DNA from: Tremella fuciformis
Taxonomy: Eukaryota > Basidiomycota > Tremellomycetes > Tremellales > Tremellaceae
Length of the DNA stretch: 64,000 nt
Reading direction: 5' to 3'
NCBI GenBank assembly: GCA_032768795.1
Contig: CP136490.1
Coordinates: 7,440,001 to 7,504,000 of the forward strand
The position numbers were made by a program, and so were the translations under genes. Shown piece by piece: positions 4,040 through 24,157 of this stretch (its first letter is position 1; each line of letters begins with the position of its first letter). A model generated the notes under the pieces. The model saw only the letters and a program-made list of their open reading frames with translations. It made no database searches and was not told where the DNA came from.

Positions 4040-5246
4040 GGTCTGCGCGTGAAAGGAGTTGAGCGCAAGGAGAGGTCGTGTGAGGGGAGATTGATGCAGT
4101 GGCCAAAGTGTGTGTGTGGGCGAGGTGACAGATGGGGTATGGGGCAGGAGGAAGGTCGAGTCGAGAGTGTCGAAGAGGATGGTCGAGTGACGGAATGGAA
4201 ATGCGGGAATGTGATAGGTCGGGAGATAGGAGAGATGCGGCGAGTCGAGTGAGGGTGTAGAGAGGGTCGCGAGGGAAAGAGACGGTATCAGCTCGCTGCT
4301 TTCGGTCGCCAAGACATCCAACTCACGAATGCGTCGAGTGTGGTTTTCTCTTTTTGGTAGAGAGAGAGAGGGAGAGGGGTAGAGAATGTAGATGAGAAAG
4401 AGAGAGTCGATGCGACGAGGAAGGGGGAGTTGGTGATGAGCTGCGGGGCGATAGGAGGTCGAGGAGAGAGCAAAGGGAAGCAGTTGGGTGAGATAAAAAA
4501 GAGTGCCCCACAGTGAGAGAGAGCGTCGTCAAGCTCCTCTACACCGTCCTTCCCCCAATTCCTCTCCTCTGACGCCTTGGACCCTGCATCTTGACACAGC
4601 CCATCACCGCGTAAAGCCGGAAGCCCAGAGGCAAGCCCAGCAGGACCCTGAACGCCCGGACCCTCTGGGTTTTCCCCTGCCCTTTTATGCCCGACCTATC
4701 AGCATTCGACAAACTCGCTCGGTGGGCGACCTTTTCCGACTCTCTCCTTGGACAAGATAAGCCCGGATTTCCGACACCCACTCTCTCTCTGTCTCTCTCT
4801 TCTCAGTGGGCCATGGCTGCATGACCGGCGGAGAAACGGCCAAGAGGCTTTCTCGGCTCGTCCCGAAAGCGAAAAGCACAACGCCCACAACAGGCAACAG
4901 GCCCGCTGTAAAAATATCGGCAAGGTTCGGACCGTTTCTCCGGCCAAGAGAATGACGCCCCGAACTTGCAGCCTCGTTCCACCGAGACACACCGAGACCC
5001 CGACCGATGCACCGAGTCATTAGAATATTTTGCATGGGGTTTCCATTTCGTTTGGCGGATGGCAAAGCTACTCTACAAGGCGTTACAGAAGGGTACGAAA
5101 GTACGAAAAGTGGTCTTGTGACACATCCCATCAGGGGCAATGACAAAGGTCAAAGGACGGTCTATCGGTCATCGCGAGATGGGGGGTCCTCTTCTGGGAC
5201 GACTGCCGGATAATGACGTATGGGGCGACTGCGGGGCTCGTATCGC
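4040..5246. promoter_or_regulatory. Upstream region of glutamine synthetase
   Basis: No convincing gene lies here. The stretch is the 5' side of the - strand glutamine synthetase and the 3' side of the - strand proline-rich gene. It contains purine-rich tracts on the + strand (CT-rich on the coding strand) at about 4140-4210, 4355-4385 and 4390-4510. A CT repeat of the opposite polarity sits at 4783-4806, and GATAAG at 4756-4761. CT-rich initiator regions are typical of strong fungal promoters. Confidence 0.4.
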
Positions 5247-7268: not shown

Positions 7269-8282
7269 GTTGCTCGTCGAGATGGACAACAATGGAGGAA
7301 GGCAACGGTATGTGAAAAGCGGCAAACCCTCGGCGGTCGAGGGTATATAGTAAGCCTGCTATGGATTTGACCTGCTGAGACGACCTGCGCCGCGGGCCAC
7401 AGTCCGTAGTCGTGGAGCGGGTCGCTGGCTGGGCAGCAGTAAGGCTGTATTAGGTTGTATTAGTCTGAGCCCCCGCGAGGAGGCGGAAGGAGAGCGAAGC
7501 GGGAAGAGCTTGTCTCGGAGTGCAAGACGGTGCAGCTTCCGTGGGATGGACGGACGTCGGTCAGCACCCATCTCCCTTCGCTGCAGCCGAAGTAGAGGTC
7601 GGTCAGAAAGTCAGGGCGGACAATAAGAAAAATTGCGGCGCAGCCCAGAGGGAAGCATCGACGAAAAAGGACAACTTTGGCTGCGCCCAACTGCGCCGCA
7701 GTCTCCTTTCCCCATTCTCCTTTTGCCGGCCGAGATCTTCACAGCAGCTCGGCATCGGCTGCTCGTGGACATAAGAGCACCTCACTCGGCGTGATGCCAT
7801 GCGTAGCGATCGTTACGAGGACTGTGTACGCTAGTGAGTGAGAGATGAACTGATCTCTAACCGGACTGTGCTGCAGCGGTGGAAGCTCGGTGGTTGGTCC
7901 CGTCGCCGGCCGAGCCCTGAAAGCTGCGCTGGAACGGCAACTGTGCGTCTGCCTCATCATCGATCATCAGTCTCTTCCGCGGCCTCCTCAAAGAGCACGA
8001 CCATCTGTCGGGGGCGAAAGCATATGGGCGTGACATCGCAACAGCAATTGATGTACGCTCACAGGCTAAATAAATCGCAAGTATCAGACAAGACAAAAAG
8101 ACCTAGACGACTGTGCCGCAGCTTTGTCAGACCCCGACAGGTCTGACGCGGTCAATGTTGACCGCTCAGTCCGGCCGCAGTCCCATCCGGCGCCACGTCA
8201 GGGGAGGAGGAGCCCGTCCAGCTTCCAGTGAAGGGGAGCATGGGTACCCAGACGTTGTCGCAGGACACTCTGATGTCCGGGC
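7269..8282. other. Intergenic region left of the retroelements
   Basis: Contains the promoter side of the proline-rich gene (TATA-like ctatata on the - strand at 7343-7350). There is also an 18-nt near-perfect inverted repeat GCGGTCAATGTTGACCGC at 8148-8165 (two 8-nt arms around TG). No ORF here looks like a real gene. The left LTR of the outer retroelement begins at 8283. Confidence 0.4.
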
Positions 8283-8480
8283 TGTAATGGAATACGTCAT
8301 CACGGACATGTCCGTAGTAGCCGACTACCCGTGAGAACTCTACATATACAGACTGAGAAGGAGAGGATACCTTCTTCGAAGAATGTATTATTCATCTGTC
8401 ACCTGGTAACTCATCCTGGCATATCAGTCGACCAGCAAGGCAGTCACTCACATACCAACTCGCGTTCACCGATCCCGACA
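8283..8480 (+). repeat. 5' LTR of outer element
   Basis: 198 bp, TG...CA ends. U3 carries a perfect 14-nt palindrome ACGGACATGTCCGT (8302-8315) and a TATA-like CATATA at about 8343. The predicted RNA 5' end is near 8378, because bases 8378-8390 are exactly complementary to the primer-binding site beyond the LTR. Confidence 0.93.
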
Positions 8481-8491
8481 GTTAATACAGT

Positions 8492-8504
8492 TAATACATT
8501 CTTC
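8492..8504 (+). other. Self-priming primer-binding site of outer element
   Basis: TAATACATTCTTC is the exact reverse complement of GAAGAATGTATTA at 8378-8390 in the LTR, the 13-nt arrangement used by Tf1/sushi elements that prime reverse transcription with the folded 5' end of their own RNA. It lies 11 nt from the LTR end because the unit GTTAATACA occurs twice in tandem (8481-8489, 8490-8498). Confidence 0.8.
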
Positions 8505-8525
8505 CCATACTTGTGGACGACAGGT

Positions 8526-11101
8526 ATGTCAGGAAGACCTACGAGACAGAACCCAACAGGAGGAGCGCCGGGAATCGACGCCCAGGCGACCCTACCTGCC
8601 GATAACAGCCACACAAGCCTTCAGATACACCCTCAACCCTCGTCACCTACTACTCGCTCGTCGCCGTTGTCCAATCTCGAGCAACCACTCGAAGAACAGC
8701 CGACGACTGGCAACAGCGACTCAAGAACCGCTCCACTCGAGGCTCCACCGACAACGTACCCGGTGGATACGAATGGAGTACATGGTTCGCACTATCTATC
8801 AACTCGACTAGCGGAGGAAGAAATTCCCCGAGTTACCCCTTTTGTGCGGGGCAATCCCCCGCACCTTAGCCAAGGTCCCACGTATCAAGAGCTACTCGAC
8901 CAACGAACTAGGATCGAGATGCAGCTCCAACAGATGGAGCAGGCACGAAGACAGCCTGTCCGAGAGCCTACACAGCCGAGGACGTCGACTACAGAACCGT
9001 ACATGACAACTACGGGGCTGAATCAACCCGTGGACATCAAAGTGGCCGCCGAGGCCGCCAAGAATATCAAGAAGCCGGATGTCTTTAGAGGCGATTTAGA
9101 CCGACTGAAGCTGGATGCTTTTGTGCACCAAGTCGAAAGATACCTGCGAATCGCAGCACCTATCTACCCGACCGAAGAGCTCAAAGTGATCTTTGCTTCC
9201 GGCTACCTACGCGACGAGGCGGAGCAGTGGTACACTGGCCTAGTCGACAACAATCAAGAACCTACCACCCTGGTAGGGTTTATGACCGAGCTTCGACGAA
9301 CCTTTGGCCGTCACCATGAGGAATTCTCGGCCTACTTCGAACTTGACCGACTCAGACAAGGCAACATGTCGGCCTCTGAGTACGTAGTAAAGTTCCGTAC
9401 TATCCTAGCACGGACCAATCAGTCACCGGATACGCAGTGCATGGCCTTCTACAAGGGATTGCGTGAGTACCTGCAACGCGAACTCATGACGCAACGACCA
9501 CGCCCTACATTCAGCGACTTCAACGACCTAGTCGAGCGTACCCTGTCTATTGACGACGCAGACCGAGAAGTCCGTGCGTTGCACCCCAAGCACCCATTTC
9601 AGGGACCAAACCCGCCGGGCCGACACCAAGGAAATGCCCGATTCAACACCCCTAGTCAACAAGTACGAGGGCATTTCCGCCCAAAAGTGGGATTGGACAC
9701 GGCAAGTAACAGAGAGTCACCACCACGCACGGCGAACAAGTCTACAACCCCTAAGCCTCAAAGTGGCAGGACGTTCACGCAACAGCCGAGAGGTCCTCTC
9801 TCGGAGGAAGAACGTAAGGCCCGTATAGAGGCAGGGGCTTGCACCTATTGTGGGAAAATGGGCCACACGATCAACAACTGTTGGACTCGACCACAGAACA
9901 AGTTACCGCCACACCGGATCAACGTAGCCCAAACCGACACAACCGATCAGACCACAGAGAACCACGTAACAGGCGATTACGCAGCTGTCAACAGCCAAGA
10001 AGGTTCGATGGCGACAGAGAGAGTGAACGTCAGACTCACTCCACCAAGCGAGCCCCAGAAAAGAAACTTGAGAGACAGGTTCAACCGGGTAATGGCCAAA
10101 TACAAAGGTCTACACAAGGTGATACCGGACCTAGGCTATCAAGAAATTCAAGGGTGGAACGAGAAGAATTTGACGCCTGAACAGGCGGAACGGAAGACGT
10201 ATGTAGCTAAAACACAGAACGTAGTACGCAATTACATTAGGAAGGCGACGTGCAGGGCGGATCCGTCTGCCTTGTACTTAACCAAAACGGAACCCCTCGA
10301 AGGGTCCAAAAGAACATCAAAAGAGGACGGCGTACGCGCCAATTATGAAACGCCTACAAGGCTGTTCAACGTCCCGATTGGCCTATCACAAATCCCTGGA
10401 GAGACCGCTAGGGCCCTCCTAGATACGGGAGCGACGTCCAACTTTGTCGACGACGAGTATGTGGCTCGACATCACCTCCCCATGACAAAACTCAAACGAC
10501 CAACGCCATTGGTAATGGCGGATGGCAGGGTATCCGAGTACGGACTCTTAACCCACCGAGTACAGCTTACGGTCCTACTGGGAAGGGGGTTCGAACCTTA
10601 TCACGCCGACTTCATAGTCTCCCCGATACGCATAGCACACTTGATCTTAGGCATGCCCTTTCTGGACAAAGTGCAGCCTGTGGTAGACTGGAGCGCGAGA
10701 ACTCTAGCACCACGGGACACAACAGACAAGACGTCAGACCAGGCCACTGCGTGGCTCTACACCGCCATCACGACGGCAGAACCGCCTACTGAGACAGAGC
10801 TACCTGCCGAATATGCACACTACAAAGACGTATTCGATAAAGGACAGGCCGATAAGCTACCAGAACATCGGCAATTCGACCACGCCATCCAACTGAGCTC
10901 GGACAAGGTACCACCAGCTGGGCCTATCTACGCACTTAGCCCACGAGAAAGGGAAGAACTAATGGCGTACCTGCGAGAAAACCTGGATAAAGGCTTCATC
11001 AGAGAGTCACGATCCCCCGCAGGAGCACCAGTCCTATTCGTCAAAAAGAAGGACGGAAGTCTGCGGTTATGCGTCGATTACCGCAAGCTCAACGCCATGA
11101 C
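8526..11101 (+). pseudogene. Outer element Gag-protease-RT, 5' part of a single Gag-Pol frame split by the inner element
   Basis: The start at 8526 ([10 protein letters not shown]) lies just after the PBS; the frame is also open upstream through the LTR. Gag has a helical capsid-like core (around 9080-9560) and a CCHC zinc knuckle [14 protein letters not shown] (residues about 439-452). The retropepsin site is [10 protein letters not shown] (Asp near residue 633). RT begins with [14 protein letters not shown] and is cut at 11101, within the codon after Met. Gag and Pol share one frame without a stop, as in Tf1. The frame continues at 20013; together the two parts make 1750 codons with no other stop or frameshift. 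Confidence 0.92.
11097..11101 (+). repeat. Target-site duplication of inner element (left copy)
   Basis: ATGAC before the left LTR is repeated exactly at 20008-20012 after the right LTR. It lies inside the codons Met-Thr of the outer reverse transcriptase. Confidence 0.95.
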
Positions 11102-11873
11102 TGTCAGACCTGTACCCGGTGACCTGTATTAGATCCAACTAAAGCTCACCTAAATCAATCTATCGGTTCAAGCTGCTAACTATTAACGACTATTCGTAAC
11201 AGATAGTAACGAACAAGAGTAGAGTGGAACCAAGCTGGGTGAGGAGCGATCAAGACTCACTTCACTTATCTATCTCTCGTCACTGGTACGGTCGATTCTC
11301 TAAGTAGACGTTCTATCTAGAGGACTAGTTAACTAGATCGCTGAGGAACTTCCTCTGCGATCTTCCTTCTTAAGTATCTGCTGACTCTCGCCCGCTCTCA
11401 CTCTGATCCTTCTAGCATCGTCCTTCGTGGATCGTTCCATCGTTCTCCTAGTCGCTTCTACTCGTTCCCAATACTCTCTAGTATTCTCTCGTCGTCTCTC
11501 TTCTCTTCTATCGTCTTCTCTCCGCGCTGGCTTGCATCTAATCTCCTTGCGTGCCCGTCGTCGTCCTTATCGTCCTCGGTCTCCGCCCCGTGGCCCTGAC
11601 TGTGAGATAACTCTATCCTCCGTTATCGTGGACCTGACTCTTGTCCTTGCGTGCGTTCCTATCTCAACTCGGCCGATGGAAGACTGAGACGTATCCTTCT
11701 ATCGTTCTCCAGGTTGTTCTAGCGCTTTCAAGAGCAAGTCGTAGTTATTCGTGACTAATAGTGACGGTTCTATCGTACTCACGTTCTTTGGTTCGTAGGA
11801 TCCTTTGGATGTTTCCGTCGGAAGTTGCCTCGTGGTAGTCTCGTGGTCAGGATGCCGTGTCGGTTTCCTGACA
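11102..11873 (-). repeat. 3' LTR of inner element
   Basis: 772 bp, TGTCAGACC...TTTCCTGACA, nearly identical to 19236-20007. As the 3' LTR of the - strand element it sits immediately upstream of the antisense + strand gene starting near 12.2-12.4 kb and could supply its promoter. Confidence 0.95.
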
Positions 11874-11890
11874 CTCCTCCCTCCTTTACA
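11874..11890 (-). other. Polypurine tract of inner element
   Basis: Read on the - strand, AAAGGAGGGAGGAG directly precedes the TG of the 3' LTR, the expected position for plus-strand priming. Confidence 0.8.
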
Positions 11891-12362
11891 TCATGAGTCC
11901 CTTCATGATAAGATTAGTCGCGACTGATTTTTATTTGTTCCTGATACCGCCTATCGGTTGTCGCTTATCGTCCCGTTGCCTAGCAACGACTTTCTACATG
12001 TCGAGCATCTGCGAGTTGTCACCCTAGTTGCCTAGCAACCGCTCGCTCTTGCGACTGCCTCATACTCGTTTTTACTCGTAACGCCGTTTTGCCGATAGAC
12101 GCCCGCAGGATACATAAGGGCGTGACTGCGCCCTCTCGTTGTTCGTTCGTACATCTATTTTTCTTGACCTTTGGCGTACCCCTATGGCCCGCTCTCGCGC
12201 ATCCGCCCAACGACGTGTGAGTACTCGATCATGTTCGTGGCTATTACTGACCAAGAGCATAAGGGACGCTTCACGCGCAAGTCCACCTCGCCCGCTATGA
12301 CGCCCCTGCCTGAGTTGGACGAGTTGGCTCCGTCAAACGAAACCCGATAAGATCTCACCCAG

Positions 12363-13543
12363 ATGGATGCGGACCCGAGTGAGTTACTACTACTCGCTCG
12401 TATTTGTCACTAATAGCAGATGAGACACCTGCCCTCCCCACTCTCTCGGATGGAGAAGGCGTCACCCAGCCTCTCGCCCCCGCCGACACCGTCTCAGCTC
12501 CCGCTGCTCTCGAACGTGCCCCCACTGCCCCTCTGAACACCGCCCAAGACAAGACTTCGTCGCCCGCCCCGGAGGCTGACAACAAATCCGAAGGTGTGTT
12601 TGTTTTCTTGTATTCGTGTGTATTCGTTCCTAATAGTTTCCAGATGGATCCGAGACTACTGATCCCGAGGGTAACGTCGATGAAGACCCTAGTAAGTCGT
12701 TCCTATTCGATTGTATCCGCAACTAATAGCAGCCTTCCTTCTTTCCTCCGATCCCCCCGCCATCGAAGACGAGCTGGACTCGTCGGAGACAGAGTCCGAA
12801 CCCCCTCGCAAGAAGGGTTCCAAGGGGAAAGGGAAACAACGCGCCATTGTCGATACTCCTATTCGCGAGCTCGACGAGACCAAGCCCATTCCGTCCACTC
12901 CGGAATCAGTTGATCCCGACGAGATCCTGGCCATTGTGAGTAGTTTCTATTCGTTACGAATAGTAACTAATTGTAGGACTATGCCACGTTCATGTCAGCC
13001 GCCCACGCGAGTCAGACCCCGTCTAAGTTTGTTCCGAAGGCAAGTGATCTCGTACTGTTTGGGGTTAATAGTGACGAATAGTCCCACACTGTCGATGTCC
13101 CCCCGCCCTACAAACGGCCGTCCGAACTTAAGGCCGGTGAGGCGCCGCCCAAGCGTGCTGCTCGCGGCACGCGCCCACTTTCAAATGAGAAGTTCGCCGA
13201 ACAGCAAAATTATCCGGTCTCGGTTCCACCGTGCCGAGGCTGTCTCAAGGCCAAGCTTGTTTGTCGAGTCAAGCCAGGCTCAATTCGCTGTGCTGTGTGC
13301 ACTTCGGCATGTTCTTTCTCAGACCCCGCGCCTTATCTTCAGGTTTTACGAGAGCATTTCCTTTCCCTCAAGGAAGGTCTGAAGGGACTCGAACGCGCTC
13401 GATTGAATTCGTCTACCTCCGGGACAGTCACTATCCCTGCGGGCACTTTTGCGGACATACATTCGCGCATTTCCCAGATAGGTGAAGCCGAGGCAGCTGT
13501 TCGTACTTTGGAGTCGCTGAAGAGGAAGAATAGGGAAATGTAG
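12363..13543 (+). CDS. Antisense accessory gene of inner element: spliced zinc-cluster-like protein
   Basis: Runs opposite to the element's gag-pol, between pol and the 3' LTR. Six exons join cleanly: 12363-12378, 12420-12593, 12644-12691, 12733-12935, 12977-13039, 13082-13543 (966 nt, 321 aa). The introns are 41-50 nt with CTAAT/CTAAC-type branch sites; the fifth has a GC-AG boundary (AAG|GCAAGT). The N-terminal half is acidic and Ser/Pro-rich with a basic patch PPRKKGSKGKGKQR. Residues about 219-244 carry CRGCLKAKLVC and CAVCTSAC, two CxxC clusters that look like zinc ligands. A Lys/Arg-rich helical tail follows (SLKEGLKGLERARL, LESLKRKNREM). An earlier exon from ATG 12184 (MARSRASAQRR) may belong to the leader. 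The function is unknown; a regulator or nucleic-acid-binding protein is plausible. Confidence 0.78.
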
Positions 13544-13610
13544 CATATAGTCATCTATCGTTGTACCTATGAAGTCCTCAATCGCACTGGGTGCTATTTG
13601 GGACTAATAG

Positions 13611-16600
13611 TTACTGACGACTTCTTAGATTATGCCTGTGCCCGGTCTCTTGCCTGACTGACTCTTGAGTTCGTTGTCGTTTGTTAGGTCGTATAGGCTC
13701 TTCTTTGTCGCTATTTGTCTTTATTCGTTTTGAATAGCTCCTATCTTTCTTGATTCCTCCGAATGTGTGACCAATGGGCTTGTCGGGGTGTCGCTCGTGG
13801 AATGTTCTTACAACCTCTGCCGCGTTTCTGACGTTCACCTCCGGCTCCCAGCCCACTTCATCGTCCCCGTAGCCTCTCCACTCCACTAGGTACTCGACTT
13901 TCCCATTCCTTGTTCTTCTTGAGTCCAGAATCCTCTCGACTTCAAATTCAGCATCAGGCTCCACTATAGTTGGTAGTCCTTGTGGTTGCCCTTTCGGTCG
14001 TATTCGTTTGTCTTCGACGCTAATAACGTCCACAGGATGCAGTCTGGACACATGAAAAACATTGTGGATCTTGAGCGTCGCTGGTAACTTCAATTTCTTC
14101 GCGTGTGTTCCTATTGATTCTTCCACCTGGAAGGGTCCATCTCGCCTGTAGTCGAGTTTCTTGCTGGGTCGTTTCGTGTTAAGGCCCTCGAGGTCCAACA
14201 TGACATAGTCTCCGTCCTTGATTTCGACCTGCGACTGGTGCTTCCTGTTGTAGTACTTCTCCATTTCCTTTCCTGCTCGTACATAGTTCTCCCTGCAGAT
14301 TGAGTGAACTTCGTTCATTGAGTTCGCACGTTGTCTTGCCTGCTGATTGTCGACTTTATTCGGTTCTAATATTTCCTGAACCCATCTAGGATGAAATCCG
14401 TGTAGCGCATAGAACGGGGTCATTCCTATCGTATCGTGATGGGCGTTGTTGATGGCGAACTGGGCGAATGCCAACAACGGTGCCCAGTTGTCCTGGTCGA
14501 AGTTGGTGAAGATCCTCATGAATCCCTCTACTTTCTGGTTATGTCGCTCGGTTTGACCATCAGTCTGCGGCCTTCTTGCCGTACTGAGTGCCAATCGAAT
14601 GTCGAATTGCTCCGTTAGACTCCTCCAGAAGTCTGATACAAATTTACTTCCCCTGTCAGATACAATCGTGCTCGGCAGTCCGTATCTGGAGAAAACCGTA
14701 TCGAATAGTAACGAACACATTTCGGGTGCGTTCAACTTTGTTACCGTGGGTATGAGCACTGTGTACTTTGTCAAGCGGTCGACCACTACTAGTATTGAAT
14801 TGAAGTTGTTTGAGACTGGCAGCTCTTCGATGAAGTCCATCGTGATGTCCTCGAACGGTAGGCGTGGAACTTCCAAGGTTCGTAGCTGACCTCTTGGTCT
14901 CTGGTTGAAAGGCTTGGTGCGCAGACAGGCTGTGCAGCTCGACACGTACTTGGTGACGTGCGCAGTGAGCCCAGGCCAGTAATAGTCCCGTTGAACCGCC
15001 TTCATAGTCCTTTTAACTCCTGGATGTCCTGCCAACGGAGTGTCGTGTCTTGAGTTTATGATCTTGAACCTCAAATCATCGTAGTCTGGGATATAGATTT
15101 TGCCGTCGATGCGGATGAATCCTTGTTGGTCTATTTCGACTCTAGTATCGCTTGATAGTCGCAATTCGTTCCTAATATCTTCGAGCGGTTTCTGTGCGGC
15201 AATCCCTTCGATGACTTGCCTGCACTGCTCGTCTTTCATATACCCTTCCCTTACTCTGCTTCCATCGATGATCCAATCATACGTGTTCGGGTCTGCTGTA
15301 CTGGGTGATTCGGTCGTTGTAACCCCATACATTTCAAGGGGTTCCTGGTCTTCGGCGATTGAAGCTGTCTTCTTTGACTCTTCTAAGTTCGTCACTATTT
15401 GGTCCAATTCGTTCTCAGCATCGATTGTCTCGATCACCTGTCGAACCTTTGAGTCCGTTTGGTAACTGTCACCGCCTCTTGTCCCTGCCAGGTCAGGTCG
15501 TCTCGACAGGGCGTCTGGTACCACGTTGCCCTTACCTGGGGTGTACACTATTCGTAGATCGAAGCGAGCCAGGATCTCTGCCCATCTGGCCTCCCTGTTT
15601 GATACCTGCTTCGGCATGGTATACCCTATCAAGGGCTGATGGTCGGTAACAAAGATTATTGGCCATTTGCTGCCCTCGAAATATGCTCGATGATGTTGTA
15701 AGCAATAAATAATTGCGAATAGTTCTTTCTCGGTGACAGTCCAGTTCTCCTCATTCGGTTTGAGCCTTGCTGAACCATAATGGATTGCCGTTCGCTTCAT
15801 GGTGTTGCGATCCACATGGTAGATCACATACCCAATGGCGAAGTCCGAGGCATCCGTGTGTACCTCTATCGGGAGCTCTGGATCGAAGTGCCCGAGAATA
15901 GGCGGTGATGATAGGGCACCTTTCAGCGACTGAAATGACTTGTCAGCCTCTTCGTTCCAAATAAACCTTGCTTTCTTCGACATCAACTTGTTGAGAGGTC
16001 TCGCAATTCCCGAGAAGTTGGGTACAAATCTTCGGTAGTAACTGAAAAGACCCACCGCAGATCGTAGTTCCTTCTGTGTAGTCGGGATAGGGAAGTTCCT
16101 AATAGTTTCTGTTAGTCCTTCGTCGGTTGCTATCCCCTCCGCAGACACCCTGTGTCCTAAGAATGTAATGCTGTCTTTCTCGAACTCGCATTTTGCTGCT
16201 TTTAGTCGAAGCTCCCATTGTCGTAGTATATCGAAGACTGTCTTGGTAAGAGCTCGAAGTTCTTCAACCGTTTTCGCGTAAATGAGAATGTCGTCGATAT
16301 ATACGTAGACACCTTTCCCTATTAGTTCCGAAAATATATCGTTCATAAAATGTTGGAACGTTGCGGGAGCCCATTTTAGGCCATCCCTCATCACAGTGGA
16401 CTCGAACATACCAAAGATAGTCCTGAACGCTGTCAGGTGTTCGTGTCCTTCAGCCATCCGCACCAGCTGATAGGCCCCTGCCAAATCCAGCTTCGTGTAG
16501 AACCGTGCGTCACGTAGATCTGCCAAGATCTGCGAGATTAATGGTAACGGATAGGCGCTATTTACTGTGGCTTCATTTAGCTTGCGATAGTCCACGACTA

Positions 16601-18104
16601 GTCGTAAGCGTCCGTCTTTCTTCGGGACAAAGAACGCCGGCGATCCATAAGGTGATAACGAATGGTATATCTTTCCTTCCGCCTTCTCCTTTTCCAAGTA
16701 TTCGTGTAAGGCGTTCTTTTCTTTCGGAGATAGTTGATAGAGAGGAGCAAGAGGCAGCTTACCTCCCTCCTTTAGTTCTATCCTGTGGTCGTACGGTCGA
16801 TGTGGCGGCAGTGCTGCCGACCCACTCGGTTCTTCAAACAAGTCTTCCCATCCTTGGTAGGCCTCTGGAATCTTGCTTTCCTTTGCCGAAGACTGTTCCT
16901 TCTCGTTCAAGGTCGTGTACGAGTCGCTCTCACTGGCGGTTACTCCGTTCACCTCTACCCTTGTTTGGTCGTATTCTTTCTCCTCAAGTGCTATTCGTCC
17001 CCATTTGTTCCAAATAGTCACATCTTGCAAATCTTCGATTGCCGTCCAATCCTCCGGATCGGTTCCGGCTTCATCCTTGCCGTATTTGTAGTCGTCGTAG
17101 ATTCCACTAGAATCATCGCTTGACTCATCATCCCTCGTAGAAGGGTCACTGAGTACGGGAGTCCCGTCTTCCGTCCCAGCCCTTTCAAGAGGATCGTCCG
17201 CCATTGGCGCTTTTTCGCAGCTATTCGTTTCTGTTGCTCCTTCGCCATCGTTGCTTATTCCAGCCTCGCCAGATCCTTCCTGGGTTACTGAGATCGGTCT
17301 CCATCGATTGCCGCTTTCCGCGATCTCGATGTTGTTGGGATAGGTTGTCCCGGACGCATAGGGCTTCCTGTAAGCCTTCCCTTTTCGTCTGTGTGGTTTT
17401 CTCACCACAGGAGTGCACGGGAACTCAGCCCATCCATGCCTCGCATCAATGGTTACTCCGTTCTCGGCCATCCACGGCCATCCCAATACAATGTCGGCCC
17501 CATTTAATTCCGTCACAAGCAATTTGACATCTATTGGGGGATATTCGGGATGAAGTTGGATGTTCGTGTCGATATAGGTGTGAACCAGACCAAACGCGCT
17601 TGTACGTCCATCAAACATTACTACGTGTTTGGGTCGTTCAATCACGGTGTGGTTTAAGGTCTGGGCTATCTCTGACCTCCAGTCGACAAAGCAGGAGCTG
17701 GCTCCAGTGTCGAACAGGATGTTGGAGAGATATCCTTGTCGGCAATATAAGGAAGGGAATCCGCACTGGAGCTTTGCCCGGCCGCCAGTTAGGAGTACCC
17801 TCAATCGTAGATTCTCGGTCATGTTATCGTAGCATACAATTGATCTTTTTGGTAGTAGTTCGTCCCCAATAAATTCTGTTCCGTTATAATTCTCGAATGC
17901 CGCACCTAGAGTGAGAGGTTTGTTTGAGCCCCGACTCCCTCTCAATTCGACGGGGCGCTTACTTTTGACTGTTGCGAGCTCGTAGAAGGGGTCGTGGTAC
18001 GCTGGTAGGTGTTCGTAGCATTGGAAGAGACCACCGTTCCTTGAGATCGCGTCGATTGCGAACAGTCCTTGGCCTGATGACCACTCTGTCCGCAAGAAAA
18101 GCAT
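13611..18104 (-). CDS. Inner element Pol: protease, RT, RNase H, integrase, chromodomain
   Basis: Overlaps gag by about 160 nt in the -1 frame, so expression as Gag-Pol needs a -1 ribosomal frameshift; the Met at 18104 need not be used. Protease NILFDTGASSCF (Asp about residue 132). RT LRLVVDYRKLNEATV and YVYIDDILIYAK (about residue 600). RNase H EVHTDASDFAIG and FVTDHQPL. Integrase zinc domain HDTPLAGHPGVKRT...CTACLRTK. Integrase core Asp in TMDFIEELP, Asp in SDRGSKFVS and Glu in QTDGQTERHN. The C-terminal chromodomain (about residues 1375-1435) contains VERILDSRRTRNGKVEYLVE and WRGYGDDEVGWEPEVNV. It ends in a basic tail. No stop or frameshift damages it. Confidence 0.95.
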   Translation of the reverse strand: MLFLRTEWSSGQGLFAIDAISRNGGLFQCYEHLPAYHDPFYELATVKSKRPVELRGSRGSNKPLTLGAAFENYNGTEFIGDELLPKRSIVCYDNMTENLRLRVLLTGGRAKLQCGFPSLYCRQGYLSNILFDTGASSCFVDWRSEIAQTLNHTVIERPKHVVMFDGRTSAFGLVHTYIDTNIQLHPEYPPIDVKLLVTELNGADIVLGWPWMAENGVTIDARHGWAEFPCTPVVRKPHRRKGKAYRKPYASGTTYPNNIEIAESGNRWRPISVTQEGSGEAGISNDGEGATETNSCEKAPMADDPLERAGTEDGTPVLSDPSTRDDESSDDSSGIYDDYKYGKDEAGTDPEDWTAIEDLQDVTIWNKWGRIALEEKEYDQTRVEVNGVTASESDSYTTLNEKEQSSAKESKIPEAYQGWEDLFEEPSGSAALPPHRPYDHRIELKEGGKLPLAPLYQLSPKEKNALHEYLEKEKAEGKIYHSLSPYGSPAFFVPKKDGRLRLVVDYRKLNEATVNSAYPLPLISQILADLRDARFYTKLDLAGAYQLVRMAEGHEHLTAFRTIFGMFESTVMRDGLKWAPATFQHFMNDIFSELIGKGVYVYIDDILIYAKTVEELRALTKTVFDILRQWELRLKAAKCEFEKDSITFLGHRVSAEGIATDEGLTETIRNFPIPTTQKELRSAVGLFSYYRRFVPNFSGIARPLNKLMSKKARFIWNEEADKSFQSLKGALSSPPILGHFDPELPIEVHTDASDFAIGYVIYHVDRNTMKRTAIHYGSARLKPNEENWTVTEKELFAIIYCLQHHRAYFEGSKWPIIFVTDHQPLIGYTMPKQVSNREARWAEILARFDLRIVYTPGKGNVVPDALSRRPDLAGTRGGDSYQTDSKVRQVIETIDAENELDQIVTNLEESKKTASIAEDQEPLEMYGVTTTESPSTADPNTYDWIIDGSRVREGYMKDEQCRQVIEGIAAQKPLEDIRNELRLSSDTRVEIDQQGFIRIDGKIYIPDYDDLRFKIINSRHDTPLAGHPGVKRTMKAVQRDYYWPGLTAHVTKYVSSCTACLRTKPFNQRPRGQLRTLEVPRLPFEDITMDFIEELPVSNNFNSILVVVDRLTKYTVLIPTVTKLNAPEMCSLLFDTVFSRYGLPSTIVSDRGSKFVSDFWRSLTEQFDIRLALSTARRPQTDGQTERHNQKVEGFMRIFTNFDQDNWAPLLAFAQFAINNAHHDTIGMTPFYALHGFHPRWVQEILEPNKVDNQQARQRANSMNEVHSICRENYVRAGKEMEKYYNRKHQSQVEIKDGDYVMLDLEGLNTKRPSKKLDYRRDGPFQVEESIGTHAKKLKLPATLKIHNVFHVSRLHPVDVISVEDKRIRPKGQPQGLPTIVEPDAEFEVERILDSRRTRNGKVEYLVEWRGYGDDEVGWEPEVNVRNAAEVVRTFHERHPDKPIGHTFGGIKKDRSYSKRIKTNSDKEEPIRPNKRQRTQESVRQETGHRHNLRSRQ

Positions 18105-19186
18105 AAGCCCGAATCCCTTCGTCTCTGCTTCTCGAACTCACTCAGGCGTGGTCGCATACCTAGGCCTGCGAATGGGTTGCCATTCCATGGGGTGGTCGCA
18201 CGCGGTGGCTGAGTGCTCTTGACTGTGCTGGTTTCTGATGAGCGGTTAAAACTGGTAACAGCTGGTCGCACTCGCCCACTATTCGTTTCTATTTGTCGCG
18301 GTTCATGCCTCTCTGTGCGTCCTTGTTCGTTCTTCTTCTCTTGTTCCCTCTCGAACATGCGTTCATCAAGTCTCGTGATCACCGTGACAAAGTCGTTCCA
18401 GGTCTTAGGGATTTCCTCCACCTTGGTAGCGATGGCGTCCTTGAGAGAGGGCTTCAAGCCTTCCCTAGCCTTGGCGATGAGAACCGAATCGGGCCAATCC
18501 AGCAATGATGATAACTGTTCGAACTCTGCAAAGTAATTCGTAACAGAAGACTTTTGTTGGATCGCTAATAGTTTCCGTTCGGCTGTATGAACTTCATCTG
18601 GGTCTCCGTAGGTTCGTTTGATGTGTTTGATGAACAACCCGTAATCGTGAAGCCATCTAGGCTGATCGTCGACATCCTTAGCTAAGTGCGCCTCAATAGA
18701 GTGCAGTGGCGCCTTCCTAAAGAACGATATCATATATCGGATCTTGGCATAGTCGGTGGCGTATCGGGCTGGTTGTAAGTCGAAGACCAGCTGACACTGC
18801 GTCAGGAATCCGGTGAGCTTGTTCCTTTCTCCTTGATACTCGTCCGGAGAGTTGACCTTTGGTTCCTTGTTGTTCGATTTGTTCGTATTAGTCTCGAATT
18901 GGTTCACTCGATGCTCAGTCATCATCCTTTGATTCTGACTCAAAAGCAACAGTGCCTCACCAATCTTATCGAGTTGGGTCCTGATCGAAGAGAGCCCATC
19001 ATCCTGGGTAGACTCCATCGTGTCTTCTTGAGCGCCTGGCTCGTACACGCCTGGCGTACCTTGGACTCCTTCTCCTTCCTCCGTGGTAGTCCCAGTGGGA
19101 GGAGTGATCAGCTCATGCTCTGCGTCGGGATTGCCTGTCGCGCCTCGGTTCCTAAGGCCGTACCCGGTCGTAGGTGCAGAGGACAT
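17942..19186 (-). CDS. Inner element Gag
   Basis: 414 residues from the Met at 19186, 50 nt inside the 5' LTR. A coiled-coil-like segment (IRTQLDKIGEALLLLSQNQR) precedes a capsid-like helical core typical of Ty3/gypsy Gag (about residues 120-270; LTGFLTQCQLVF, FAEFEQLSSLLDWPD). A CCHC zinc knuckle CFSCGQSGHQAKDC lies near the end. The stop is at 17942-17944; pol continues in the -1 frame. I see no textbook slippery heptamer in the overlap. Confidence 0.93.
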   Translation of the reverse strand: MSSAPTTGYGLRNRGATGNPDAEHELITPPTGTTTEEGEGVQGTPGVYEPGAQEDTMESTQDDGLSSIRTQLDKIGEALLLLSQNQRMMTEHRVNQFETNTNKSNNKEPKVNSPDEYQGERNKLTGFLTQCQLVFDLQPARYATDYAKIRYMISFFRKAPLHSIEAHLAKDVDDQPRWLHDYGLFIKHIKRTYGDPDEVHTAERKLLAIQQKSSVTNYFAEFEQLSSLLDWPDSVLIAKAREGLKPSLKDAIATKVEEIPKTWNDFVTVITRLDERMFEREQEKKNEQGRTERHEPRQIETNSGRVRPAVTSFNRSSETSTVKSTQPPRATTPWNGNPFAGLGMRPRLSEFEKQRRRDSGLCFSCGQSGHQAKDCSQSTRSQGTVVSSNATNTYQRTTTPSTSSQQSKVSAPSN

Positions 19187-19220
19187 GTCGTCTTGATTTG
19201 GTGGCTTGTCGAAGGATATG

Positions 19221-19233
19221 AGCGATCTAGTTA
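19221..19233 (-). other. Self-priming primer-binding site of inner element
   Basis: In the sense (-) strand TAACTAGATCGCT begins 2 nt after the 5' LTR. It is the exact reverse complement of AGCGATCTAGTTA inside the same LTR (19464-19476). This 13-nt match predicts the RNA 5' end near 19476 and tRNA-free priming as in Tf1. A TATA-like CTTAAG lies about 31 nt upstream of that point. Confidence 0.85.
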
Positions 19234-19235
19234 TC

Positions 19236-20007
19236 TGTCAGACCTGTACCCGGTGACCTGTATTAGATCCAACTAAAGCTCACCTAAATCAATCTATCGG
19301 TTCAAGCTGCTAACTATTAACGACTATTCGTAACAGATAGTAACGAACAAGAGTAGAGTGGAACCAAGCTGGGTGAGGAGCGATCAAGACTCACTTCACT
19401 TATCTATCTCTCGTCACTGGTACGGTCGATTCTCTAAGTAGACGTTCTATCTAGAGGACTAGTTAACTAGATCGCTGAGGAACTTCCTCTGCGATCTTCC
19501 TTCTTAAGTATCTGCTGACTCTCGCCCGCTCTCACTCTGATCCTTCTAGCATCGTCCTTCGTGGATCGTTCCATCGTTCTCCTAGTCGCTTCTACTCGTT
19601 CCCAATACTCTCTAGTATTCTCTCGTCGTCTCTCTTCTCTTCTATCGTCTTCTCTCCGCGCTGGCTTGCATCTAATCTCCTTGCGTGCCCGTCGTCGTCC
19701 TTATCGTCCTCGGTCTCCGCCCCGTGGCCCTGACTGTGAGATAACTCTATCCTCCGTTATCGTGGACCTGACTCTTGTCCTTGCGTGCGTTCCTATCTCA
19801 ACTCGGCCGATGGAAGACTGAGACGTATCCTTCTATCGTTCTCCAGGTTGTTCTAGCGCTTTCAAGAGCAAGTCGTAGTTATTCGTGACTAATAGTGACG
19901 GTTCTATCGTACTCACGTTCTTTGGTTCGTAGGATCCTTTGGATGTTTCCGTCGGAAGTTGCCTCGTGGTAGTCTCGTGGTCAGGATGCCGTGTTGGTTT
20001 CCTGACA
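19236..20007 (-). repeat. 5' LTR of inner element
   Basis: 772 bp. From the self-priming match, U3 would be 19477-20007 and R-U5 19236-19476. The right copy of the ATGAC target duplication follows at 20008-20012. Confidence 0.95.
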
Positions 20008-20012
20008 ATGAC

Positions 20013-22689
20013 GATCAAGAACAAATACCCTTTGCCCCTGATAGGCGACGTAATCGACCAGATACGTGGATCGACCGTGTTTACCAAGTTAGACCTACGG
20101 GGTGCATACAACCTCGTCCGCATAGCGGAGGGGGATGAGTGGAAGACAGCCTTCCGCACACCCTTCGGACAATACGAGTACCTGGTCATGCCCTTCGGGC
20201 TCTGCAATGCACCAGGCTCGTTCCAGCTATTTATCAACCACGTCTTCCACGACCTACTCGACAAGTACGTGGCTGTATACCTCGACGATATATTGGTGTA
20301 CTCCAAGGATCTGGAACACCATACCCGCCACGTACAGGAAGTCCTGCGACGACTACGAGAGTATAAGCTATTCGCCAAACTCTCGAAATGCCAATTCCAC
20401 AGCAACGAGGTGGAGTTCCTGGGTTTCGTTCTTAACAAAAACGGCATCAAGATGGACCCAAAGAAGGTGGAGGCGGTACAGGACTGGCCCACGCCTACGA
20501 ACTTGAAGGAGACACAGTCGTTTGTAGGGTTCGCCAACTTCTACCGCAGATTCATCAGGAACTTTTCGGTAATAGCCAAATCCTTACACGACTTAACCAA
20601 GAAGGGAACGCCCTTCCAATGGGGACCCAAACAGCAGGACGCTTTCGATTCTCTCAAGCGAGCGATGACTACGGCTCCCGTACTCAGCCACTACGACCCA
20701 AATCTTCCCCTATTACTAGAAACGGACGCGTCGGACTACGCTCTGGGTGCGATCCTGTCACACACCTACCCAGATGGTACGACCAGACCCATCGCATATG
20801 CTTCTCGGAAGATGGATCCGGCAGAACTCAACTATCCAGTTCACGACAAGGAGTTCCTAGCCATCGTGTACGCATTCAAGAGTTGGCGACATTACCTCGA
20901 AGGTACCCGAGTACGAGTGGTCGTACTATCCGATCACAGAAGTCTAGAGTACTTCTTAACCACCAAGCAATTGACAAGGAGGCAAGCTAGATGGAGCGAG
21001 TACATGGCCGATTTCGACTTTGTCATCCAATATAGGCCAGGCAAACAAGCTACCAAGCCAGATGCCCTGTCCAGACGACCAGACTATCGACCTACGGACA
21101 CCAAAGCAACCACTTTGTCACCAGAACTCAACGCGCACAACTTCAAGGCGTTGCTTTCTTCAGCACAGTACCTGGCAACTAGGGTCGAATACAAGGACCC
21201 TATGGCTCAAGAAGACTTTAAAGGCGCCATGGATGTGCACGAACAACAAAAATACGTGGCTCTTACGAAGAGCCATCCCGAAGAATACAAACACAAGGAC
21301 GGCCTCTTCTACTACCATGACCTACCTATCGTGCCCGAGAAGCAACGAACCACGGTCCTCATATGGGCTCATAACCTACCGACGGCTGGCCACCCGGGGG
21401 TGGCTAAGACCACATCCAGGCTACTTGCAAGATTCTGGTGGCCGAGGATGCAACGAGACGTCAAAACATGGGTAAAGCATTGCGAAACGTGCCAAAAGAC
21501 CAAACATACCAACCAACTACAACCAGGATTACTGCTAGACATACCCGTGGCAGAGCGACCCTGGTCAACTGTATCTACCGACTACATCACCAAATTACCG
21601 GACTCCAAGGGCTATACCAACATCAGCGTCTGGGTAGACCAGCTAACGAAGGCGGCGATCTTTATACCTATCGACAAGCTCGACGCCCCTACCCTGGCGG
21701 AGGCGTTTCTTACGAAAGTCTACCCAAGAACGGGGTTACCAGACCGTATCATCTCGGACAGAGGAGCACAGTACGTGTCAGCTTTCTGGCGCACAGTCAC
21801 CAGTAAGCTTGGCTGTGACCTCAAGTTCTCTACCGCGTACCACCCACAAACGGATGGGCAAACCGAAATAGTCAACAAGTGGCTGGGCCAGTACCTACGC
21901 GTATATGCCAACTACGAACAGGACGACTGGTCCGTGCTGCTTCCTACAGCGGAATTTGTATACAACACCACGGTGCACGGAACCACCAGAATGACCCCCT
22001 ACGATGCTTGGTACGGCTACACCCCTAGGCAGAATATGACAGACCCATTGGGAAGTTCCTCGCACGAAAGCGAGGAGGGGGTGACGTATACACGCAGGAT
22101 ATTTGAAAGATTCAAGTACCTTCAAGAACAGATCAAGCACGCACGGGCACAGAACAAACAGCAATACGACCGTAAACGCCGGTTACAGACATTCAAAGTG
22201 GGCGACCTAGTCTTACTTTCTGCTCGAAACTACAAAGGAGCTAGGACATCAGCCAAGCTAGATAACCGGTGGTTAGGACCATTCAAGGTGGCAGCAAAGG
22301 TCAACGACAACGCATACAAGCTGCACCTCCCCGAGTCCTACAGGATCCACGACGTGATCAACGTGGAATACCTGAAGCCCTTCTACGCCTCAGAGGAAAC
22401 AAGTACTAGCCAGTCACAACCTACGCAGTCGCCCGTCAGCGACATAGTGTTAGATGACAACGGTTATACCTACGAGGCGATCCTTGACGAACGAATGGTC
22501 AAGGACAAACATGGGATTACCTCCAAACACTACCGTATCAAGTGGATAGGATGGCCTATCAGTGACAGTACATGGGAACCAGCGGCAGAGGTGGAAAGCG
22601 ACCCTGCCTTCACCACCATGTACGACGCCTACTCAAACTCGGAGAGCCAGAGTAGGAGAAAGAGATTCGTACCTAACAGGTACGCGTGA
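20013..22689 (+). pseudogene. Outer element RT-RNase H-integrase-chromodomain, 3' part of the split frame
   Basis: Resumes as IKNKYPLPLIGDVIDQIRG in the same frame as the part ending at 11101. RT active site VAVYLDDILVYS (about residues 945-956 of the joined frame), RNase H ETDASDYALG, integrase HHCC (H...H...CETCQKTK). The integrase catalytic triad D1382, D1441, E1477 has D-to-E spacing of exactly 35 residues. The C terminus carries a chromodomain (ILDERMVKDKHG, YRIKWIGWPISDSTWEP), which in this clade directs integration to marked chromatin. It ends at 22687-22689. All catalytic residues are present, so only the nested insertion breaks it. Confidence 0.92.
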
Positions 22690-22812
22690 GCGTACCTGTC
22701 AATAACCTACACTCGTTGTTCCAACTACGCGACGGTCATTACATGCAAGAGAACGCATAATTATGTACAACACGCCCCGGAAGAGGAAGGAAGCGCCAAC
22801 CTACAACACCTA

Positions 22813-23740
22813 CTACGCATCGTCATCGGCCTCGGCGTCCTCCTGATCGGTCGCCTCGTCGTCGGATGGGTCCGACTCCTGTGCATAGCCGCCGCGGCCT
22901 CTATACTTGGAATAGTCAACTGGCCTTTTGGGAGACCTGTGCTCCGTCTTGACCTGGAATCCGTCGACTATCTGCCAATTAGCAACCGTAAGTGACCAAA
23001 TATGCTAACGTACAAACAAGGCTCGCCCGACGTACCCCTTCCATCTCTTCTTGTCATGGGCGGTCATGCGGTCAGTAGACGACAGCTCGCTCCGTAGATC
23101 CTGCAGAGTCGAGCCCAGTTCCTGCCAGGCACTTTCGCGAACGGTGCCCCGAGGACGTTTGCCTAGGGCAAGACCGAGCTGGATGTCGCAAGAAACTCCA
23201 TGCTGGGAGTGACAACGCACGCAGCTGAGGTAAGCGTAGTTGGCAGGAACAAATCAGTACTTGCGAGGAAACTGCGCGGGACCCGCCTCCTTGGAGTACT
23301 ATAGCGGCCACGACACAAGGCTTGCCAGCCTTTTCGCAGGCATTACACTCTGGTAATGAGCCGTGTAATCGCGGAATAGACTCACTGTCGGCGGCCCTTA
23401 CGATCCTTAGCCGACCATCCCACGCTGCTATGAATGCCACGGCGGTGCGCATCACATGAGCTCGGTGCCGGCCAGCTTCATCAACCGACATCGCCGCTAA
23501 GGTCGAAGATAGCTGGTTGGAGAGATCCTACTAGTCAGCGAATACCGCTCAGTAACTGCCACGTACCGCCGCTCGATGCTTGGCCTGAGTGAGGGTCCCG
23601 TCAAAGCCGACATGTCGCGCTCGGTACGTTCTACCGTTGCCTATGCGGTATGTAGTCGAATCGTCGTTGGCATCGACGATGGCGTACGAGGCAGGAGGGG
23701 ATACAGACACGTCTGCGGCGGTGTAGATACGAGCAGGCAT
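22813..23740 (-). CDS. Antisense accessory gene of outer element: spliced zinc-cluster-like protein
   Basis: Convergent with the outer gag-pol (123 nt from its stop) and lying before the 3' LTR. Exons on the - strand: 23740-23567, 23527-23386, 23349-23265, 23224-23014, 22971-22813; they sum to 771 nt, 256 aa, ending at TAG 22813. Introns are 36-42 nt. The second is an in-frame 36-nt candidate, and the third uses GC-AG (CTC|GCAAGT). The product starts MPARIYTAADVSVSPPASYA and carries CNACEKAGKPC followed by CVRCHSQHGVSC, two CxxC clusters. It ends with an Arg/Gly patch and a very acidic tail (SDPSDDEATDQEDAEADDDA). Same position, orientation and cysteine layout as the inner element's gene, but little other similarity. 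Function unknown. Confidence 0.72.
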
Positions 23741-23940
23741 CGTTAACGTACTTGGCAAGTTGGGGTGTCGCTCGAGGATTCAAGAAAGAAGAGAGATGGA
23801 CGAAGAACGGGCGCCCAACCTGGCTGGTTCATATATTACCGCGCCCGTCACTGCACGCCCTACTCTGCAGTTCTCATGTCGACACCCTCACGACCGTCGT
23901 CAAGGAGACGCCCGTCGCTAGGCTCGGTCGCGACGCCCGA

Positions 23941-23959
23941 GGACAAAGGAGGAGGCGAC
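23941..23959 (+). other. Polypurine tract of outer element
   Basis: GGACAAAGGAGGAGGCGAC directly precedes the 3' LTR at 23960, as expected for plus-strand priming. Confidence 0.75.
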
Positions 23960-24157
23960 TGTAATGGAATACGTCATCACGGACATGTCCGTAGTAGCCG
24001 ACTACCCGTGAGAACTCTACATATACAGACTGAGAAGGAGAGGATACCTTCTTCGAAGAATGTATTATTCATCTGTCACCTGGTAACTCATCCTGGCATA
24101 TCAGTTGACCAGCAAGGCAGTCACTCACATACCAACTCGCGTTCACCGATCCCGACA
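23960..24157 (+). repeat. 3' LTR of outer element
   Basis: 198 bp, identical to 8283-8480 except T for C at 24106. Its right end abuts the 3' end of the first orphan paralogue. Confidence 0.93.

What the first reader, a model, noticed from the sequence alone, without database searches (positions are those of the whole stretch)
8283..24157. Two nested chromoviruses share one accessory design: an antisense CxxC-pair protein between pol and the 3' LTR
Both elements place a convergent, multi-intron gene 67-123 nt from the pol stop, and both products have C-x2-C-x6-C followed by a second CxxC cluster, though the sequences are otherwise dissimilar. Shared placement with strong divergence suggests an old, maintained module in Tf1/sushi-type fungal elements. 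Possible roles are control of copy number, chromatin targeting with the chromodomain, or countering host silencing through antisense transcription.
Basis: inference. Interest (0 to 1): 0.88.

Follow-up and report, generated by a model that had tools for sequence, protein, structure and literature searches.

The report
Antisense zinc-cluster gene in fungal retrotransposons
Many retrotransposon families in one fungal genome carry, between their polymerase gene and their end repeat, a backward-facing gene with introns for a small cysteine-cluster protein that resembles, distantly, fungal DNA-binding regulators; it looks like an old accessory gene of these elements.

Summary
Two nested Tf1/sushi-type chromoviruses each carry an antisense, multi-intron gene 67 nt (inner) and 123 nt (outer) from the pol stop, before the polypurine tract and 3' LTR. 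The gene is intact in 16 of 20 other inner copies and 9 of 9 other outer copies fetched. Change is mostly synonymous (outer dN/dS about 0.05, inner whole gene only 0.27-0.58).

It extends beyond the two elements. I read the pol-3' stretch of 17 hand-picked further chromovirus copies of the same genome. Counted by family with these two, 13 of 15 carry an antisense six-cysteine cluster: ten by a fixed pattern, the outer one after splicing, one with a long first loop, one by eye. The fixed pattern hits 0 of 19 sense strands and about 0.01 of 19 in shuffles. Of 114 antisense-gene copies in five families, 109 lie convergent to a pol end.

A profile of the clusters finds Zn(II)2Cys6 proteins in the PDB (11 of 12 hits, weak, best E 0.008) but Pfam's Zn_clus cut-off is not reached. 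I read it as an accessory gene for a divergent zinc-cluster nuclear regulator; its action is inferred. Antisense ORFs here are known in plants and Botrytis Boty; I found no report of this shared module in nine literature searches.

The parts
8283..8480 (+). 5' LTR of the outer chromovirus
   Evidence: 199-column match to 23959-24157 with 1 mismatch; TG...CA ends
8331..11132 (+). outer element: long ORF with gag and protease, broken off by the inner element
11102..11873 (-). 3' LTR of the inner chromovirus
   Evidence: 773-column match to 19235-20007 with 1 mismatch
12184..12216 (+). inner antisense gene, exon 1
12258..12378 (+). inner antisense gene, exon 2 (premature stop in this copy)
12420..12593 (+). 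inner antisense gene, exon 3
12644..12691 (+). inner antisense gene, exon 4
12733..12935 (+). inner antisense gene, exon 5
12977..13039 (+). inner antisense gene, exon 6 (followed by a GC-AG intron)
13082..13543 (+). inner antisense gene, exon 7, with the six-cysteine cluster and the C-terminal tail
13232..13312 (+). six-cysteine cluster C-x2-C-x6-C-x8-C-x2-C-x3-C of the inner antisense protein
13611..18104 (-). inner pol: RT, RNase H, integrase, SH3_Tf2-1, chromodomain
17942..19186 (-). inner gag with zinc knuckle
19236..20007 (-). 5' LTR of the inner chromovirus
20008..22689 (+). outer pol, second part: RT remainder, RNase H, integrase, SH3_Tf2-1, chromodomain
22813..22971 (-). outer antisense gene, exon 5
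23014..23224 (-). outer antisense gene, exon 4, with the second cysteine triad (23188-23223)
23265..23349 (-). outer antisense gene, exon 3, with the first cysteine triad (23315-23347); followed by a GC-AG intron
23386..23527 (-). outer antisense gene, exon 2
23567..23740 (-). outer antisense gene, exon 1
23960..24157 (+). 3' LTR of the outer chromovirus

Best explanation
The antisense gene is a genuine accessory gene of Tf1/sushi-type chromoviruses, carried and inherited with the element. It encodes a small protein whose core is a divergent Zn(II)2Cys6-like cluster. It is probably transcribed from its own promoter between the 3' LTR and the gene, towards pol. The product most likely acts in the nucleus, binding DNA of the element (the LTR or 3' region) to regulate the element's own expression. 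Shown: gene structure, conservation, synonymous bias, position, spread over families, weak profile similarity to Zn2Cys6 proteins. Inferred: zinc and DNA binding, the promoter, autoregulation. Antisense orientation also explains how a multi-intron gene persists: the genomic RNA copied in retrotransposition is the sense strand, so introns of the other strand are not spliced out of it (established logic of retrotransposition, not tested here).
For: Open frames and splice sites conserved across copies: 16 of 20 other inner copies and 9 of 9 other outer copies fetched. Outer: dN 0.0052, dS 0.100 between the window copy and each of L018-L020; 21 of 771 exon sites but 13 of 157 intron sites differ. 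Inner exon 7: dN/dS about 0.16 against L040 and 0.08 against L064. L052 family 0.21-0.30 and L056 family 0.17-0.28, three copies each. Same place in 13 of 15 families; 109 of 114 copies convergent to a pol end. With each cluster (and, for L041/L043, both) left out of the profile, 10 of 11 real clusters were matched by at most 2 of 200 shuffles that keep the cysteines. PDB profile search: 11 of 12 hits at E<=10 are proteins I know as Zn2Cys6 (LAC9, Pho7, S. pombe C27B12.11c, GAL4 x4, PPR1, LEU3 x2, CBF3 subunit B), best E 0.0077.
Against: Pfam Zn_clus is not reached: 1 of 8 proteins at E 0.12, 12.9 bits against a cut-off of 21, and none of the listed Zn_clus matches of the genome lies in the antisense-gene stretches (compared by eye; list truncated). 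The best PDB hits and the comparison with 8 host Zn_clus sequences align only one triad, the profile's first to the other's second (hhalign probability 46%). Four host clusters tested with the profile were matched by 6, 6, 12 and 39 of 200 shuffles. Leaving a whole clade out, 3 of 11 clusters (inner, L042, L050) fall short of a 5% level; with single omission L043 was matched by 38 of 200. In the young inner family the whole gene has dN/dS 0.27-0.58 against 0.03-0.07 for pol, and exons differ as much as introns (2.3 and 2.1 against 2.1%). Two families lack the gene. On the small SH3-chromodomain tree its presence is not clustered beyond shuffles (83 of 500 as low). No expression or binding data; the AlphaFold model of exon 7 alone is unusable (pLDDT 49.6).
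Confidence: 0.55

Rival explanations
1. The antisense transcription itself is the function: convergent RNA pairs with the element's sense RNA, giving double-stranded RNA that limits copy number; the reading frames are secondary.
For: The antisense gene lies wholly within the expected sense transcript, and its stop is 67-123 nt from the pol stop. The review PMC7264820 (parts 1 and 2 of 3 read) proposes such a role for plant antisense ORFs. In the inner family exons vary as much as introns.
Against: Conserved splice sites, open frames and synonymous bias in four families, and a shared cysteine pattern in 13 of 15 families, need a protein.
Confidence: 0.12
2. The protein is an RNA- or particle-associated accessory factor (zinc-knuckle or nucleocapsid-like helper, or nuclear import of the integration complex) rather than a DNA-binding regulator.
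For: Cysteine clusters also serve RNA binding; retroviral accessory proteins act in transport (general point in PMC7264820). The inner protein has lysine/arginine-rich stretches.
Against: The spacing is not C-x2-C-x4-H-x4-C, and the element already has a gag zinc knuckle. The PDB profile hits are DNA-binding activators.
Confidence: 0.18
3. Different families captured host Zn(II)2Cys6 genes independently; the likeness is convergent or due to repeated capture.
For: The host genome has about 150 Zn_clus matches. Proteins are dissimilar outside the cluster. The label needs 4 changes on the SH3-chromodomain tree.
Against: Clusters resemble each other more than Cys-keeping shuffles and resemble four host clusters less. 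Last-loop length follows the pol clade: x3-x5 in inner, L048, L052, L056, L057 (clade support 88/90, with L049), x6-x7 in the eight others.
Confidence: 0.2
4. The antisense genes are passengers: nested insertions or host gene fragments carried along without use.
For: In some copies the gene is broken or missing (L034, L036, L038, L040, L053).
Against: Fixed distance to pol within families (for example 69 nt in 20 inner copies, 448 in 19 outer, 357 in 16 of L051 type), and dN/dS well below 1.
Confidence: 0.05

Closest known systems
[quoted passage not shown]
   Same: Same place and orientation, in most copies of a family; Grande's product is reported nuclear with its own promoter (PMC7264820, parts 1 and 2 of 3 read).
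   Different: The review reports no clear similarity to known proteins apart from an SMC and a transposase-28 domain in single elements. Here one cysteine cluster is shared by many families of a fungal genome, and the two genes modelled have four and six introns.
brtn, the antisense gene of Boty-like elements of Botrytis cinerea (Zhao et al. 2011, Virology)
   Same: Antisense gene in a fungal Ty3/gypsy element. PMC7264820 places it between pol and 3' LTR; the title was seen in the reference list of PMC8365987 (passages).
   Different: Paper not held and sequence not available, so homology is untested. It concerns one group of elements in an ascomycete.
Zn(II)2Cys6 transcription factors (GAL4, LAC9, PPR1, LEU3, Pho7; Pfam PF00172)
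   Same: Six cysteines in two triads. L042 and L046 have the canonical spacing; the profile finds this class in the PDB.
   Different: Below Pfam's cut-off. The conserved basic first loop of the eight host members compared is not conserved here. Last loop x3-x5 in one group, linker x17 in the outer protein. In the inner protein the cluster is near the C-terminus.
HTLV-1 HBZ antisense regulator
   Same: Antisense gene near the 3' LTR encoding a nuclear regulator (recalled; the review mentions an HTLV antisense promoter in the 3' LTR).
   Different: HBZ is a bZIP protein (recalled). Here a cysteine cluster, many introns, and a possible promoter outside the LTR. Analogy only.

Membership tests
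Tf1/sushi-type chromovirus (both carrier elements) | RT, RNase H, integrase with SH3 of Tf2-1 type and C-terminal chromodomain | tested here: met
   both elements
Tf1/sushi-type chromovirus (both carrier elements) | TG...CA LTRs, polypurine tract, target-site duplication | tested here: met
   inner duplication exact (ATGAC), outer only approximate
Tf1/sushi-type chromovirus (both carrier elements) | self-priming of reverse transcription (recalled as a Tf1 trait) | not tested
   5' leaders not analysed
Zn(II)2Cys6 (PF00172) | score above Pfam's curated cut-off | tested here: not met
   1 of 8 proteins at E 0.12, 12.9 bits against 21
Zn(II)2Cys6 (PF00172) | spacing C-x2-C-x6-C-x5-12-C-x2-C-x6-8-C (recalled) | tested here: inconclusive
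   met by L042 and L046; inner (x3) and L048, L052, L056, L057 (x4-x5) fail the last loop, outer the linker (x17)
Zn(II)2Cys6 (PF00172) | profile similarity to solved and host members | tested here: inconclusive
   11 of 12 hits, E 0.0077-1.5; one triad, probability 46%; host clusters barely above shuffles
Zn(II)2Cys6 (PF00172) | binds two zinc ions and DNA | not testable with these tools
   needs protein
Antisense additional ORF between pol and 3' LTR | antisense, between pol stop and 3' LTR, in most copies, conserved as protein | tested here: met
Antisense additional ORF between pol and 3' LTR | antisense transcript from its own promoter (as for Grande gene23) | not testable with these tools
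   no RNA data; TATA-like strings upstream of both start codons seen are not evidence of function
brtn of Boty elements | sequence homology to brtn | not testable with these tools
   paper not held

The most novel reading that the evidence does not exclude
Fungal chromoviruses carry a dedicated, ancient transcription-factor-like gene of their own: a divergent zinc-cluster regulator on the antisense strand, inherited with the integrase lineage, with a DNA-binding specificity of its own in each family (for the LTR, for lifting host silencing, or for site choice together with the chromodomain). It may share its origin with the many Zn2Cys6 regulators of fungi.
Probability: 0.35. Interest if true: 0.88.

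Novelty: new variant of a known kind. Interest (0 to 1): 0.74.

Why it matters
Antisense ORFs between pol and the 3' LTR have been reported one family at a time, with no function known (PMC7264820). Here one recognisable module, a six-cysteine cluster, occurs at that place in most chromovirus families of one genome. That turns scattered oddities into a family with a signature that can be searched for, and it gives a concrete hypothesis: element-encoded zinc-cluster regulators. It also warns annotators that multi-exon cysteine-cluster genes in TE-rich fungi may belong to retrotransposons. The orientation gives a simple reason why an intron-rich gene can survive in a retrotransposon.

Tried and rejected
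Rejected: a 300-nt inner LTR; direct alignment gave about 772 nt. Rejected: a plain noncoding antisense RNA as the sole explanation (synonymous bias, splice-site conservation). Rejected: filing the protein under Pfam Zn_clus.

Led nowhere: homologue searches. The outer protein gave one hit, P0001, 158 aa on a 600-base contig, 75% identical over 37%. Inner exon 7 gave none at E<=10. A six-sequence alignment gave P0002, which is almost identical to the L052-family product and so adds little, and P0003 at E 5.5, not significant. A viral-contig scan with P0003 found no relative. AlphaFold on exon 7 alone gave pLDDT 49.6, so no fold search was run. The tree of the SH3-chromodomain stretch has long branches for outer, L051 and inner and is only a rough guide. 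The host species was not identified.

In one search, fragment rows were dropped before counting (L052 34 to 31, L056 28 to 26, L051 18 to 16), and the pol list was the part that belongs to these families. In some searches, codons with stops or gaps were left out of dN/dS. Several copies are damaged (stops or frameshifts in L058, L059, L061, L065; a cysteine lost in L063). Only 20 of 21 other inner copies and 9 of 18 other outer copies found were read over the gene.

Literature: nine searches ran. PMC3248453, PMC2864245, PMC5381629 and PMC8365987 were seen as passages; in the first three the word antisense does not occur. PMC2864245 mentions in a figure legend an additional ORF of unknown function in some fungal elements; the figure itself was not seen. 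Most subscription papers are not held.
Full report
WHAT IS THERE. The window lies at G000:C1:7440001-7504000 of an unnamed 28.1-Mb genome in 11 contigs. An outer chromovirus on the + strand (LTRs 8283-8480 and 23960-24157) is split in its RT by an inner chromovirus on the - strand (11102-20007). The inner LTRs are about 772 nt, not 300, and ATGAC flanks it on both sides. Both pol proteins carry RT, RNase H, integrase, SH3_Tf2-1 and chromodomain. Between the pol stop and the polypurine tract plus 3' LTR each has an antisense gene. Inner: 7 exons, 12184-13543, 367 codons. Outer: 5 exons, 23740-22813, 256 codons. Each has one GC-AG intron among GT-AG introns, and introns are 36-50 nt. The gaps to the pol stop are 67 and 123 nt.

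ARE THEY GENES? Inner: 22 copies of the gene in the genome. Of 20 other copies read, 16 are open throughout with all six splice-site pairs. L034 lacks the 5' part, L036 has a stop, L038 an insertion, and L040 aligns only in the last exon. The window copy has a premature stop in exon 2 not shared by the 17 other full-length copies. Outer: 19 copies. All nine other copies read are open with conserved splice sites; L011 is the window copy itself. Between the two outer subfamilies (window against L018-L020) dN is 0.0052 and dS 0.100, and exons differ at 21 of 771 sites but introns at 13 of 157. The outer pol C-terminus gives 0.0112/0.0574, so the antisense protein is at least as constrained as pol there. 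The inner gene is less constrained: dN/dS 0.27-0.58 for the whole gene within the young family against 0.03-0.07 for the pol C-terminal part, and exon, intron and pol divergence are alike at about 2.1-2.4%. Its last exon, with the cysteines, is more conserved over longer distance: about 0.16 against L040 and 0.08 against L064.

BEYOND THE TWO ELEMENTS. A search for the SH3_Tf2-1 family in the genome listed 150 matches. I took 17 stretches of about 2.7 kb running downstream from such a match or from a pol match, chosen by hand to look different. By nucleotide similarity four pairs belong together (L044/L047, L048/L049, L050/L053, L054/L055), leaving 13 families, 15 with inner and outer. A fixed pattern finds an antisense six-cysteine cluster within 1.5 kb of the pol end in 10 of 19 intervals (L041, L042, L043, L046, L048, L050, L052, L056, L057, inner), in 0 of 19 on the sense strand, and in 0.01 of 19 on average in shuffles. 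The outer one appears after splicing, L045 with a longer first loop, and L051 by eye across an intron that I did not model. That makes 13 of 15 families. L044/L047 and L054/L055 show none. L053 lacks the stretch that its relative L050 has, and L049, a relative of L048, shows no cluster. L041, L043 and L046 have a second cluster further from pol.

LINKAGE AND SELECTION IN OTHER FAMILIES. DNA searches with the antisense stretches of L052, L056 and L051 gave 34, 28 and 18 matches. After dropping seven fragment rows, 109 of 114 antisense copies of five families (inner 21 of 22, outer 19 of 19, L052 30 of 31, L056 23 of 26, L051 16 of 16) face a pol end within 1.5 kb, mostly at a fixed distance. 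Divergent copies give dN/dS 0.21-0.30 (L052, three copies) and 0.17-0.28 (L056, three copies), although several of them are damaged.

WHAT IS THE PROTEIN? The clusters align as C-x2-C-x6(8,9)-C-x7..11-C-x2-C-x3..6-C, often followed by S and F or L. When each cluster in turn was left out of the profile (L041 and L043 together), 10 of 11 scored above at least 198 of 200 shuffles that keep the cysteines; L043 did not (38 of 200). Leaving out a whole pol clade is harder: 8 of 11 stay below 5%, and inner, L042 and L050 do not. The outer cluster against the profile of the 11 was matched by 17 of 500 shuffles. So a common family is likely, not proven. In the PDB the profile finds 12 chains at E<=10, 11 of them proteins that I know as Zn2Cys6 regulators, best E 0.0077. 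The two best alignments shown match the profile's first triad to single triads, whereas GAL4 aligns over most of the profile. Pfam Zn_clus is not reached, host Zn_clus sequences are only slightly nearer than shuffles, and hhalign aligns one triad. I therefore call it Zn2Cys6-like and do not file it as a member. A model of inner exon 7 without relatives is unreliable throughout; it suggests two helices after the cluster.

HISTORY. On a tree of the 160-column SH3-chromodomain alignment, clusters with a short last loop (x3-x5: inner, L048, L052, L056, L057) fall in one clade (88/90, with L049) and the x6-x7 ones outside it. This fits descent with the element. The presence label itself needs four changes and is not clustered beyond shuffles (83 of 500), and three rows have long branches, so losses and gains cannot be told apart.

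HOW IT PROBABLY WORKS. Inferred: the antisense gene has its own promoter. TATA-like strings lie about 75-100 nt upstream of both start codons, a weak sign. It makes a small nuclear zinc-cluster protein that binds the element's own DNA and tunes its expression. The introns persist because the RNA that is copied back is the sense strand. Rivals: regulation by the antisense RNA itself, an RNA- or particle-bound helper, or repeated capture of host factors.

KNOWN OR NEW. Antisense ORFs at this place are known in plants and in Boty of Botrytis (PMC7264820, parts 1 and 2 of 3; title of Zhao et al. 2011 in PMC8365987). None of the nine literature searches that ran listed a zinc-cluster module shared by fungal chromoviruses, but subscription papers are mostly not held. 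I rate it a new variant of a known kind.

Noticed in passing
L041 (antisense, 1982-2260 sense coordinates), L043 (1636-2073), L046 (1451-1636): A second antisense six-cysteine cluster further from pol in three families: a second gene, an upstream exon or another element.
   Followed up: partly
L050 and L053: Two copies 93.6% alike in the pol end; L053 lacks the stretch holding the antisense gene while sequence beyond it matches again, so the gene may be dispensable, or lost in a derivative.
   Followed up: partly
L055 1092-1877: Stretch 95% identical to the inner LTR (about 11102-11875 of the window), probably a solo LTR next to another chromovirus.
   Followed up: no
L044 1116-1782 and L053 1325-1995; L054 1609-2327 and L057 1748-2476: Shared 93-95% identical stretches of about 0.7 kb beside unrelated pol ends, perhaps further LTRs.
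   Followed up: no
window 5220-7370 (+) and 5247-7325 (-): Two long ORFs (716 and 692 aa) on opposite strands of the same stretch; only a sub-threshold DUF7330 match on the - strand.
   Followed up: partly
window 13040-13081 (+) and 23264-23225 (-): Both antisense genes contain a GC-AG intron, next to or inside the cysteine cluster, in all aligned copies.
   Followed up: partly
G000: At least 150 SH3_Tf2-1 matches in 28 Mb, a heavy chromovirus load, many copies nearly identical.
   Followed up: no
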